From Candida dubliniensis CD36 (Eukaryota; Ascomycota; Pichiomycetes; Serinales; Debaryomycetaceae), in NCBI RefSeq assembly GCF_000026945.1, contig NC_012861.1, positions 2,046,001-2,110,000 on the forward strand: a DNA stretch of 64,000 nucleotides. The letters are read 5' to 3'. Below the pieces are notes generated by a model, which was not told the origin of the DNA, did no database searches, and saw only the letters and a list, made by a program, of their open reading frames with translations. A program made the position numbers and the translations under genes. Position 1 is the first letter of the stretch. Every line of letters starts with the position of its first letter. Of this stretch, positions 1 through 4,174 are shown piece after piece.

Positions 1-71
1 TTCAAATTTCAAATTTCAACTTTAGCCGCGTTTTTACTTATTTAGGTAAATAATTCCGTACCGGCCAACTA

Positions 72-81
72 CTATTACTAC
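72..81. repeat. Left target-site duplication (10 bp)
   Basis: CTATTACTAC directly abuts the left TIR and is repeated exactly at 2275-2284 directly after the right TIR. The surrounding DNA is a CTA/TTA-rich simple sequence, so part of the match could be coincidental, but the positions abut both TIRs exactly. Confidence 0.8.
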
Positions 82-112
82 GATGCTATCTATTTTGGCG
101 GTGAATTGACAG
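82..112 (+). repeat. Left terminal inverted repeat of the MULE
   Basis: These 31 bases are the exact reverse complement of 2244-2274. The outermost bases are GATGCTATC, and the inner end is GAATTGACAG. Confidence 0.92.
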
Positions 113-966
113 AAAATTGCCAATGGCGATAACATGCATATTTGAGCATAAGAATTCTGCATGTTGTACTCCTTTTGTTTACATTTTTTGTTTACATTTT
201 GCTTACCTCCAAAATATCTTTCATCCCTTGCTCTGTCCTTTTTCTTCTTCATGATGATAAATGCCAGGCTGGCGTGACCTCAATTATTTTCCTCTCACCA
301 CCACTTTTTTCTCCTTCTTCCTTCACCATTCGTTCATCAATCCATCAGTTTCCATCATAAATCAATCAAATAGTTACTGCTACTGGGATTACAGATACTT
401 TAAGTCATGATATGTATGATTAATACCCTTGTTTTTGAAGAACTGTGCTTACTAACTAACTAATATAGATGAGTTATTGATTTTTGTTTGACCAGTAGGT
501 GTCAAACTTTTGGAATTGCTATTTGGTGAGTTATAATAATTCAAGAATGGTGTACTTCTATTTGACAATTTCTGTCGGATGTTATTGCTCAAATTGCTTG
601 ATGCTAAAGTGGGTTTTTATTTTGAGGATTGAATAGCGAGTGGCATGTTCATTATCCATGAAATCTTATTATTAGGGCTGTTGAGTGGATCATTTAACTT
701 GAATTGGACAGGGGCTTAGGGCTATTAATTTGCATTTACTCGAAGTTATGGTATGATCTAAACTAGTTTTCCACTTCAACAATTACAGATAGATAAATTG
801 TTAGTGTGATGTACATTTTCCAGCCAACTTGGATTTATGATTCAATATTAAGGGCACAAACGAGTTTTTATAAAGTATATACTTGTTTATAGAGGCTTTG
901 TATTCAATGAGATGAGTTTAAGTTAATGATTTGATCATAATTAATGTGTCATATCACATAAAGTAG

Positions 967-1858
967 CCTAAGGTTTCTCACGGTCACAAGAACGCTGCTG
1001 TGGAATACGAGGAATACCACTGCAACCGTGGTGATTCCTATACTCAAACAAGTTTAAACCATCAACAAAATCAAAGTGAAGCTGCGAATGAAAACAATAT
1101 CAACAATGTATTTGCTGTGAAAAAAAGAAACAGAAAAGAATCCATAAAAATAAACTGTCCAGCAAAAATCATAGTTCAGCAGAAACATAAAGGGGAACAG
1201 TGGTTTGCTGATTGGATTTATCACCATAACCATGTTTTTTCAAATAGCTACTACCATAATAGTCGGCTAAGCAAAAAATTGGTTAATTCAATGTTGGATC
1301 CAATTTACAGAAGTTGCCAAAATGTGGCTCTGAAATTAAAACGAATTGTAGTTTTTGAAGACAAGCAGCGACAAAAGGCTATTCATGATCTGATAATAAA
1401 AGACTTGCAGCATATTTTATTCAATCCAGAAAATACTGAAAATGATATCCAAAGTTTTCTTAATAAATATGCATCTTTTGAAAGATTTATAACCTATTTT
1501 AATTGAGCTGCTCACTTCACTGCCACCTCCACAGCACAATACAACAGCTTTAGCAATTGACAATACAACAGCCTCAACAAGTCATAATACAACAGCTTCA
1601 ACAAGTCAGAATATGCTGAATATATCAAGAATAAGTGCAGATAACTTTGAGAAACTCGATGATATGGAGAACGGTCTCCCCCAACTACCCGAATTAATTG
1701 CTGATATTAAAAGACGAAAGCTATACGAAAAAAGCCAGTTCAATGATATTTATATAACGTACCTTGTACTTAAGAAAGATTTGAAACATTTATCTTCTGG
1801 CAAGAGAAACTTATCATATACTAACAAGTCAGAAAAACGAAGGAGATTAAATGAATGA
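967..1858 (+). pseudogene. Remnant of FAR1-domain transposase-like ORF, split in two frames
   Basis: The first open stretch (967-1506) has no ATG near its beginning and is preceded by a TAG at 964; it could be a broken 5' end or a later exon. It encodes a pattern typical of FAR1/WRKY-GCM1 DNA-binding domains: YHCNRGD, then a basic KKRNRKES stretch, INCPAKI, an aromatic core (QWFADW) and HHNH, giving Cys, Cys, His and His zinc ligands. After TGA at 1504-1506 the next frame is open from about 1493. It reads through a Thr/Ser/Asn-rich linker into a second segment (1613-1858) ending in a basic KSEKRRRLNE tail, so a one-base slip near the T run at 1497-1500 would join the two. No DDE/RNase-H-like catalytic region is seen. 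It could alternatively be a domesticated DNA-binding protein. Confidence 0.6.
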
Positions 1859-2243
1859 ATTGTTCTTATTATTTTATATAAAGTTTGATTTTATATATAG
1901 TTGTTTGTATTATTGAGTATAAATTATTAAGACTTGAAGTGAGAAGCCGAAGAGATGGGGCCGAGTTCAATTCTCTAGTGCGAGGAAGTAGTACCACTTC
2001 GACCTAGAGTTGTCGACCTAGGCAAAGATCAAGGGATAAAGAATCCAAAAAAGGAAATTTAGGGGAGGATAATTGCATATTTTTTCTATTTATAGTAATA
2101 GAAATACTAATTTCGAACCGGCTCCATACATATTTTGCAGTAGAAAAGATGACTCTTTATTGAATTTTCTTCCTAAACTAGTAACTGAGAATCTGAAAAT
2201 CACACGAGAAATATGCATGTAGTAATTAAAAAAAAAGAAATTC

Positions 2244-2274
2244 CTGTCAATTCACCGCCAAAATAGATAGCATC
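2244..2274 (-). repeat. Right terminal inverted repeat of the MULE
   Basis: Exact reverse complement of 82-112 over 31 bases. Inward of it the similarity is lost except for an 11-bp block, CATGCATATTT on the complement, at 2209-2219. Confidence 0.92.
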
Positions 2275-2284
2275 CTATTACTAC
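2275..2284. repeat. Right target-site duplication (10 bp)
   Basis: CTATTACTAC is identical to 72-81 and abuts the outer end of the right TIR. A duplication of this length fits Mutator-type insertion. Confidence 0.8.
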
Positions 2285-2671
2285 TATTACCAATTGTTAA
2301 CAATAACAAAAAAAAAAAAATTGACTTCTTCTTCTTCTTCTTCTTCTATTTGTTCTACTTTAAATTGTTTTCCGCACTTTTTCACTTTTTTACTTTTTCA
2401 CTTTTATTCTAAAACAACAAGAAAAAAAAAAGAACTACTAACCCACCATCATCCATCAACCAACAATAAGGAAGCAAAAGAACAAAAAAAAAAAAGTTAA
2501 TCATCTTTCCATTTCCCTTAACGAATACTTTCCCTTCCTCCCCTCCCCCCCTTCTTTTTTTTTATAAACCATAAACCCTAAAGATTAATTTAATAGATAT
2601 ATATCCTTAAAATCCTATTTTTATTCTACTAGAATAAAGATTAATAAATTAATCAAAAATTAAAGAAAAAA
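2285..2671. other. Short gene-free region upstream of the PQ-loop gene
   Basis: About 390 bases of low-complexity A-, TTC- and CCT-rich DNA lie between the transposon and the next ATG. It presumably holds the promoter and 5' UTR of the PQ-loop gene. The open reading frame at 2294-2500 is made of simple repeats and is not a convincing gene. Confidence 0.5.
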
Positions 2672-3844
2672 ATGCTGTCAATAATCTACAATATATTCAC
2701 CAGTTCCTCCTTCATCTCTTCCTCCAATGCTGCTACTATACAACCATCAAAATGGAGGATACAAATCAGTGGAGTTATGGGATCAACATCATTAGCATGT
2801 TGGATAGTTTTATTAATGCCTCAATTAATTGAACAATGGAAATTAAAATCTGTTGAAGGTATAGCTATTGGATTTATAACTATTTGGTTTATTGGAGATA
2901 TTTTTAATCTTTTAGGAGCAATTTGGGCAAATTTATTACCAGAAATGATTTTTTTAGCTATATGGTTTTGTATTGCTGATTTTTTAATGATATTTTCATA
3001 TATTTATTATACTAAAATATATCCCAAACATCATCATGAGCATCATCACGAGCATCATCACGAACATCATCACGAACATGGAGAAAATGAACATCATCAT
3101 CAACATCATCATCACAGTAAGAGAAGAAGTAGAGGAAATGATAATGAATCTAGTCCATTATTAAATACTACTAGAAGCAGTAGCAGAAGCAGAAGCAGAA
3201 GCAGAAGCAGAAGTAATAGTAATGATCATGATCATGATAATATTCATAAAACTAGGAGAATAAGTAGTAATAATAAAAGAAGAAGAAGAAGAAGTAGTAC
3301 ATTAACTGATATTGCTTTAGAACCAGAATATCATTCAATTTTTATTAAATATATTTTACCAATTTTATTTGTTATTGGATGTGGAACATTAGGATTTTTT
3401 ATTAGTGGATCATCATCACCACCATCATCACCACCATCATCACCACCACCACCATCAAACGATGATTCACCTCCTTCCGATGATCAAAATCATTATAATG
3501 ATAAAGATATTATTGCTATTGGACCACAAATTATGGGATATTGTAGTGCCATATTATATTTAGGTGCAAGAATCCCACAAATTATTCAAAATTATCAACG
3601 TAAAAGTGTTTATGGATTAAGTTTATTATTTTTTCTTTTTTCAACTTTAGGTAATTTAACTTATGCTGGACAAATATTATTTTATCGTAATGATAAACAA
3701 TATATTTTATTAAATTTAAGTTGGTTATTAGGTTCATTAGGAACAATTTTAGAAGATTCATTGATTTTTTTACAATTTTATATATATCGTGATAATAATA
3801 ATATCAATGATAATGATGATAATGATGAAGCAACAATTGAATGA
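2672..3844 (+). CDS. PQ-loop vacuolar membrane transporter (Ypq1/2/3-like)
   Basis: This 390-aa membrane protein carries two PQ-loop motifs. The first is LLMPQLIEQWKLKSVEG (about residues 47-63) and the second ARIPQIIQNYQRKSVYGLS (about 298-316), each within hydrophobic helices in the usual seven-helix arrangement. The family includes yeast Ypq1-3 and human PQLC2, lysosomal or vacuolar exporters of cationic amino acids. The long hydrophilic loop between helix sets is unusual. It contains a His-rich HHHE array (about 118-148), an Arg-Ser repeat (about 167-182), KRRRRRS and a Pro-Ser run, which suggests metal binding or phosphorylation, by inference. Codon 2 is CTG, read as Ser in this clade. 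Which of the three Ypq paralogues it matches cannot be decided here. Confidence 0.85.
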   Translation: MLSIIYNIFTSSSFISSSNAATIQPSKWRIQISGVMGSTSLACWIVLLMPQLIEQWKLKSVEGIAIGFITIWFIGDIFNLLGAIWANLLPEMIFLAIWFCIADFLMIFSYIYYTKIYPKHHHEHHHEHHHEHHHEHGENEHHHQHHHHSKRRSRGNDNESSPLLNTTRSSSRSRSRSRSRSNSNDHDHDNIHKTRRISSNNKRRRRRSSTLTDIALEPEYHSIFIKYILPILFVIGCGTLGFFISGSSSPPSSPPSSPPPPSNDDSPPSDDQNHYNDKDIIAIGPQIMGYCSAILYLGARIPQIIQNYQRKSVYGLSLLFFLFSTLGNLTYAGQILFYRNDKQYILLNLSWLLGSLGTILEDSLIFLQFYIYRDNNNINDNDDNDEATIE

Positions 3845-4174
3845 TAAAGAAAGGTGTTTGTATGTGTGTGTGTGTGGAGGGTTAACACCAATTCAACTAA
3901 TTCATTTATTTTTTTTTTTTTTTTTTTTGCATTTTTTAAAGAAATAGTTAGATTTTTGTAATACTAAGAATAACAATAATAACAATTAAACAATATATGT
4001 GTATATATGTATATATATCTAAAATAAAACAAAACCACCAAAAAGAAGAAGAAGAAAAAGTTGTTATCCTATCTATCTATCTATTTATCCATCTATCTAT
4101 TATTTTCACTTTTTAATTAAAATTCAAAAAAAAAAAAAAAATTACATATCTCTCTTCTCTATCTATATTTAATC

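What the first reader, a model, noticed from the sequence alone, without database searches (positions are those of the whole stretch)
72..2284. Complete-ended Mutator-type transposon in a CUG-clade yeast
The sequence shows 31-bp perfect TIRs, an inner 11-bp inverted match and a perfect 10-bp duplication directly abutting both ends. Identical TIRs and TSD imply a fairly recent insertion. Together with a FAR1-domain ORF this is a MULE, a class little documented in Candida. Part of the TSD match could be due to the CTA/TTA-rich target.
Basis: partly seen in the sequence, partly recalled or inferred. Interest (0 to 1): 0.75.

Follow-up and report, generated by a model that had tools for sequence, protein, structure and literature searches.

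The report
Seven-copy yeast Mutator-like DNA transposon
This is one of seven near-identical copies of a cut-and-paste DNA transposon in a Candida genome; its own transposase gene is a dead remnant, so it must have been moved by an enzyme made elsewhere, which makes it a new example of a known kind.

Summary
Window 82-2274 has 31-bp perfect terminal inverted repeats (TIRs) and a 10-bp direct repeat abutting both ends. The empty-site check in relatives could not be run. It is a Mutator-like (MULE) insertion family in a CUG-clade yeast, most likely Candida dubliniensis. It is not a complete transposon in coding terms. The recognisable coding sequence is half a FAR1 DNA-binding domain plus a probable fragment from behind the catalytic core, with no start codon and, in three copies, shifts or stops. 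No MULE catalytic domain was found in any copy. So it is a non-autonomous deletion derivative. No MULE gene examined here shares its TIRs, although three intact full-length MULE genes exist elsewhere. Copies are mosaics, so divergence does not date insertions simply. MULEs in Candida albicans were already in print. Extra: core-less MULE derivatives that keep FAR1 recur in this genome, two with open frames. Verdict: real, a new member of a known kind, modest interest.

The parts
72..81 (.). target-site duplication, left copy (CTATTACTAC)
   Evidence: 9-10-bp duplications at 7 of 7 copies
82..2274 (+). non-autonomous MULE copy, 2193 bp
82..112 (+). left TIR, 31 bp
   Evidence: one distinct sequence among 14 TIR arms of 7 copies
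2244..2274 (-). right TIR, 31 bp
132..143 (+). subterminal inverted match, left
2209..2220 (-). subterminal inverted match, right
967..1503 (+). open frame 1 (179 codons stop to stop, code 12), no ATG before the FAR1 part: transposase relic
1096..1239 (+). C-terminal half of a FAR1 DNA-binding domain (profile 47-88 of 90)
   Evidence: E 0.0022, below cut-off; 32.1 bits; 0 of 1979 scored shuffles reach it
1321..1500 (+). probable stretch from behind the MULE catalytic core
   Evidence: 11.8 bits, 1 of 1988 scored shuffles reaches it; suggestive only
1493..1855 (+). open frame 2 (121 codons); possible transposase C-tail, not established
   Evidence: 30 of 1743 scored shuffles reach the score
1535..1613 (+). 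24-bp direct repeats; a 24-bp unit is missing in 2 of 7 copies
2275..2284 (.). target-site duplication, right copy

Best explanation
Window 82-2274 is one of seven copies of a non-autonomous Mutator-like (MULE) DNA transposon. Shown: intact identical 31-bp TIRs, 9-bp (once 10-bp) target duplications, seven dispersed copies, no catalytic domain found in any copy, a FAR1-half relic of a MULE transposase. Inferred: an autonomous MULE lost its catalytic core by internal deletion; the core-less version kept both ends and was cut and pasted in trans by a MULE transposase that recognises these TIRs. That source is not recognisable in this assembly by its TIRs: either it has been lost, or it is one of the intact MULE genes elsewhere, around which I saw no TIR. 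After insertion the copies exchanged sequence, by gene conversion or template switching.
For: Seven full-length copies on contigs C1 (2), C3 (2), C4 (2), C5 (1), the only full matches listed; the 149-bp end finds the same seven and their opposite arms, 14 matches. The 15-bp TIR core has 14 exact places, all in these copies; the two one-mismatch hits (C2, C6) lie in unrelated sequence, one inside a fatty acid synthase gene. TSDs exact at 7 of 7. Pairwise substitutions 6/2231 to 46/2178. FAR1 is the best Pfam hit of the relic in the two copies tested, and a profile of six MULE-protein segments scores it 32.1 bits against at most 8.0 for 1979 scored shuffles. PF10551 finds four other places in the genome, none in the seven copies. 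Mosaicism: 205 of 435 pairs of informative sites fail the four-gamete test; 0 of 5000 order shuffles are as low in failures among sites up to five apart, 8 of 5000 among adjacent sites.
Against: No autonomous element with these TIRs was found. The FAR1 score is under Pfam's cut-off at every place listed in the genome. The post-core relic is only suggestive and the C-tail relic weak. No empty site in a relative was examined. The window copy's duplication is 10 bp, or 9 bp plus one added C at the left end. 31 two-mismatch hits of the TIR core were not inspected; the reversed pattern gives 29 hits in all, so most are expected by chance.
Confidence: 0.9

Rival explanations
1. The family is moved in trans by one of the intact MULE genes of the same genome (843, 1004 or 1059 aa), around which no TIR was seen and which may be host-adopted transposases, rather than by a lost partner with the same TIRs.
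For: Three uninterrupted genes with MULE or related RNase H-like matches exist. The 1004-aa gene has two core-less relatives at 98-99% DNA identity on C2 and C3, so that lineage was recently duplicating.
Against: None shows a TIR of this kind in the stretches scanned (only about 0.8 and 1.1 kb of flank for the 1004-aa gene), and the relic in the element is far from all of them in sequence.
Confidence: 0.2
2. A Pack-MULE: TIRs around captured host-gene fragments.
For: About 900 bp of the left half have no recognisable coding relic.
Against: The whole element matched nothing else in the genome but the other copies at E 0.001; Pfam on six frames of the window copy finds only FAR1 at E 0.1.
Confidence: 0.04
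3. A different cut-and-paste superfamily (hAT, with 8-bp duplications, by recall) with a FAR1-like chance hit.
For: FAR1 is under its cut-off.
Against: Duplications are 9 bp in 6 of 7 and 10 bp in 1 of 7; the FAR1 match beats every scored shuffle.
Confidence: 0.03
4. Segmental duplication or host repeat, not transposition.
For: None found.
Against: Copies end exactly at the TIRs, each flanked by its own different exact duplication.
Confidence: 0.01

Closest known systems
Candida albicans MULE, 'Phantom-Ca' group and TvCaMULE clade (PMC6446971, PMC2725143; passages)
   Same: close relative host; 9-bp TSD; TIR of similar length (34 bp reported)
   Different: those encode transposases; this family does not. 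Their TIR letters were not available, so identity or descent was not tested
Mutyl of Yarrowia lipolytica (PMC5014426; passages)
   Same: yeast MULE, 9-bp TSD, short TIR (22 bp, imperfect)
   Different: Mutyl is 7.4 kb and codes for MudrA and MudrB; this family is 2.2 kb with only a broken transposase relic
Hop of Fusarium oxysporum (described in PMC5014426; passages)
   Same: fungal MULE, perfect TIRs, 9-bp TSD
   Different: Hop has 99-bp TIRs and an 836-aa transposase
MATalpha3 of Kluyveromyces (described in PMC5499181; passages)
   Same: MULE-derived gene in a yeast
   Different: a host-adopted transposase gene, not a dispersed family

Membership tests
Mutator (MULE) superfamily, non-autonomous member | target-site duplication of 8-11 bp | tested here: met
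   9 bp in 6 of 7, 10 bp in 1 of 7; range as given in PMC6446971 passages
Mutator (MULE) superfamily, non-autonomous member | terminal inverted repeats at both ends | tested here: met
   31 bp perfect, one distinct sequence among 14 arms
Mutator (MULE) superfamily, non-autonomous member | dispersed copies with independent insertion sites | tested here: met
   7 copies on 4 contigs, different duplications
Mutator (MULE) superfamily, non-autonomous member | sequence relic of a MULE transposase | tested here: met
   FAR1 half, 32.1 bits, 0 of 1979 scored shuffles; under Pfam's cut-off
Mutator (MULE) superfamily, non-autonomous member | an autonomous relative with the same TIRs | tested here: inconclusive
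   none found in this assembly; other genomes of the genus not held
Autonomous MULE | own D-D-E MULE transposase | tested here: not met
Phantom-Ca | same TIRs and transposase lineage as the C. albicans element | not testable with these tools
   the paper I recall as its source is not held, nor is the sequence
Pack-MULE | captured host-gene fragment | tested here: not met
   none seen at E 0.001 by DNA or E 0.1 by Pfam

The most novel reading that the evidence does not exclude
Core-less MULE derivatives that keep the FAR1 DNA-binding part are not mere debris in this genome. Several lineages produced them, two as single-locus genes with open frames of 392 and 556 codons. They may act as TIR-binding repressors or as host DNA-binding proteins, while full-length MULE genes without recognisable TIRs act in trans on orphan families such as this one.
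Probability: 0.1. Interest if true: 0.6.

Novelty: new member of a known kind. Interest (0 to 1): 0.3.

Why it matters
DNA transposons of Candida albicans are described as present but not characterised in detail (PMC7175516, passage). This is a well-delimited, multi-copy, exactly bounded family with near-identical copies, so insertion polymorphism between isolates can be tested directly, and the matching transposase can be sought by its TIR. It also warns that copies exchange sequence, so divergence is a poor clock.

Tried and rejected
Autonomous partner: the TIR letters were sought in 11 fetched loci, best match 20 of 31. A TIR-plus-TSD scan was run around MULE-related loci: seven loci were truly scanned, and the window copy as positive control was recovered. 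L034 gave only one weak AT-rich pair, in two registers, and six gave none. The eighth, L058 (1004-aa gene), had an empty left range, a fault found on checking. It was repeated on 4,893 bp: no pair, best TIR match 18 of 31. Solo TIRs: two one-mismatch hits rejected; 31 two-mismatch hits not inspected. Protein relatives: a search with the FAR1 frame among long proteins gave none of 71 candidates. The 843-aa gene gave one (P0001) of 7,995 scored candidates. The frame itself gave three of 14 candidates (P0002-P0004), of the same family from unnamed assemblies. P0002 and P0003 have an indel and frame combination not seen in the seven copies. Selection: frame 1 has 10 nonsynonymous and 8 synonymous changes with 79% nonsynonymous expected; frame 2 has 15 and 4 with 77% expected. 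I do not read frame 1 as selected, since four of its changes sit beside a 51-bp indel and may be misaligned. Broken host gene: joined flanks showed frames over the junction of 154, 103 and 70 codons from the first ATG at three of seven sites. For the first, 29 of 109 residues of the left piece and the whole 56-residue right piece, searched apart, hit no Pfam family; the other two were not searched. tRNA on the seven loci with 1.5-kb flanks and Rfam on window 1-4000: nothing.

Full report
Observation. The finding's coordinates are exact. The element runs from 82 to 2274, with perfect 31-bp TIRs (82-112, 2244-2274) and a 10-bp direct repeat at 72-81 and 2275-2284. A 12-bp perfect inverted match lies just inside (132-143, 2209-2220).

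Host. The genome has 14,618,422 bases in 8 contigs. C. dubliniensis CD36 is listed as 14.6 Mb and 8 chromosomes, C. albicans as 14.3 Mb and 8, C. tropicalis as 14.6 Mb in 24 pieces (PMC5499181, table passage). A 107-residue piece of the fatty acid synthase beta gene is 107 of 107 identical to chain 6u5v_B, which I recall as C. albicans; the table names no organism. I take the host to be C. dubliniensis; this is inference.

Copies. The whole element finds seven full copies and nothing else but their ends (the tool scores only its best candidates). The left 149 bp find the same seven; the 15-bp TIR core has exactly 14 perfect places, 2 at one mismatch and 31 at two, against 29 in all for the reversed pattern. 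Element lengths are 2170, 2195, 2171, 2249, 2248, 2231 and 2193 bp. All 14 TIR arms are the same 31 letters. Target duplications are exact in 7 of 7: 9 bp in six, 10 bp in the window copy. Random 9-mers from the two flanks match at 0 to 2e-5 for six copies and 1.2e-4 for the window copy. No 9-bp rule could be seen from one copy; seven make it plain.

Coding. Frame 1 (967-1503) is open for 179 codons in 4 of 7 copies but has no ATG ahead of the FAR1 part. In the other three copies it is broken by frame shifts or stops. Pfam's best hit is FAR1, profile 47-88 of 90, E 0.0022 (window) and 0.0011 (copy L010), below the cut-off of 28.1 bits. A genome-wide FAR1 scan lists 13 places, seven of them these copies, none over the cut-off. 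A profile of segments cut by me from six MULE proteins (after seeing) scores frame 1 at 32.1 bits; 0 of 1979 scored shuffles (2000 made) reach it, best 8.0. The end of frame 1 matches the stretch behind the catalytic core at 11.8 bits (1 of 1988 scored shuffles reaches it). Frame 2 against MULE C-tails gives 2.6 bits (30 of 1743 reach it) and is not established. The genome-wide PF10551 search, to E 1, lists no place in the seven copies and Pfam on six frames of the window copy finds only FAR1. So the element is a MULE without its engine.

Divergence and mosaicism. Pairwise substitutions run from 6 of 2231 (0.27%) to 46 of 2178 (2.1%), gap columns left out. The first 102 and last 47 alignment columns are invariant. 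Thirty two-state sites have each state in at least two copies. 205 of 435 pairs of them fail the four-gamete test. Failures are fewer among near sites than expected: 0 of 5000 order shuffles are as low for sites up to five apart, 8 of 5000 for adjacent sites. The copies have therefore most likely exchanged sequence. The pair C4:1583070 and C1:125056 is closest, but this need not date an insertion.

Other MULEs in the genome. Three uninterrupted full-length genes were found: 843 aa at C5:291123, 1059 aa at C3:2018908, some 24 kb upstream of the window copy, and 1004 aa at C7:1065515-1068526. By eye each has LD-TH, IDCS and NNY-E motifs of a D-D-E enzyme; this was not tested. None shows this TIR, or a 20-bp TIR with 8-11-bp duplication, in the stretch scanned (for the 1004-aa gene only one search counts, with about 0.8 and 1.1 kb of flank). 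Core-less derivatives recur. C7:535754 is a relative of the 843-aa gene at 84% DNA identity over both ends, with residues 257-776 unmatched. Two copies at C2:1853275 and C3:88686 are 99.6% alike over 1,664 bp and keep residues 1-266 and 880-1004 of the 1004-aa gene, with stops. Two single loci, 392 codons (C2:1744812) and 556 codons (C7:581953), are open throughout and have no MULE match in Pfam at E 0.1; the second has no FAR1 match either, its kinship resting on 31-41% identity to the 1059-aa protein. Internal deletion keeps ends by nature, so repeated core loss alone is expected; open frames in two of them are the part worth testing.

Mechanism. Shown: ends, duplications, copies, missing core. 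Inferred: core lost by internal deletion, then movement in trans by a MULE transposase with fit to these TIRs, 9-bp staggered insertion, later gene conversion or template switching. The source is either gone from this assembly or one of the intact genes without a recognisable TIR.

Literature. MULE-type proteins of C. albicans are in PMC2725143, 'Phantom-Ca' (9-bp TSD, 34-bp TIR) in PMC6446971, and C. albicans DNA transposons, MULEs among them, are called not characterised in detail in PMC7175516 (all seen as passages). I found no description of this C. dubliniensis family in searches. Those cover open-licence papers only; I read listings and the passages cited. The C. dubliniensis genome paper and the paper I recall as the Phantom source were not held, and Repbase was not searched.

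Noticed in passing
G000 C2:1853275-1854397 and C3:88686-89808 (L077, L076): two 99.6% alike core-less copies related at 98-99% DNA identity to the intact 1004-aa MULE gene on C7; homology to that gene begins exactly at its ATG. Left ends not seen.
   Followed up: partly
L040:1492-2667 and L059:1060-2724: core-less relatives of MULE transposases (L040 with a FAR1 match, L059 without) with open frames of 392 and 556 codons; possible host-adopted DNA-binding proteins.
   Followed up: partly
L033:3124-5655, L035:2909-6088, L058:13-3027: three uninterrupted full-length MULE transposase-like genes with no TIR detected in the stretches scanned.
   Followed up: partly
G000 C3:2018908-2026552: cluster of an intact MULE gene and a decayed one about 20-27 kb upstream of the window copy.
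   Followed up: no
L036:3526-7813: decayed MULE gene next to retrotransposon-like frames (reverse transcriptase-like sequence, recognised by eye).
   Followed up: no
window 2672-3844: 390-codon gene starting 398 bp downstream of the element; looks like a PQ-loop membrane protein (by recall), so the element sits in its upstream region.
   Followed up: no
P0002-P0004: proteins of the same family from unnamed assemblies; P0002 and P0003 have an indel and frame combination not present in the seven copies, so further copies or strains exist.
   Followed up: partly
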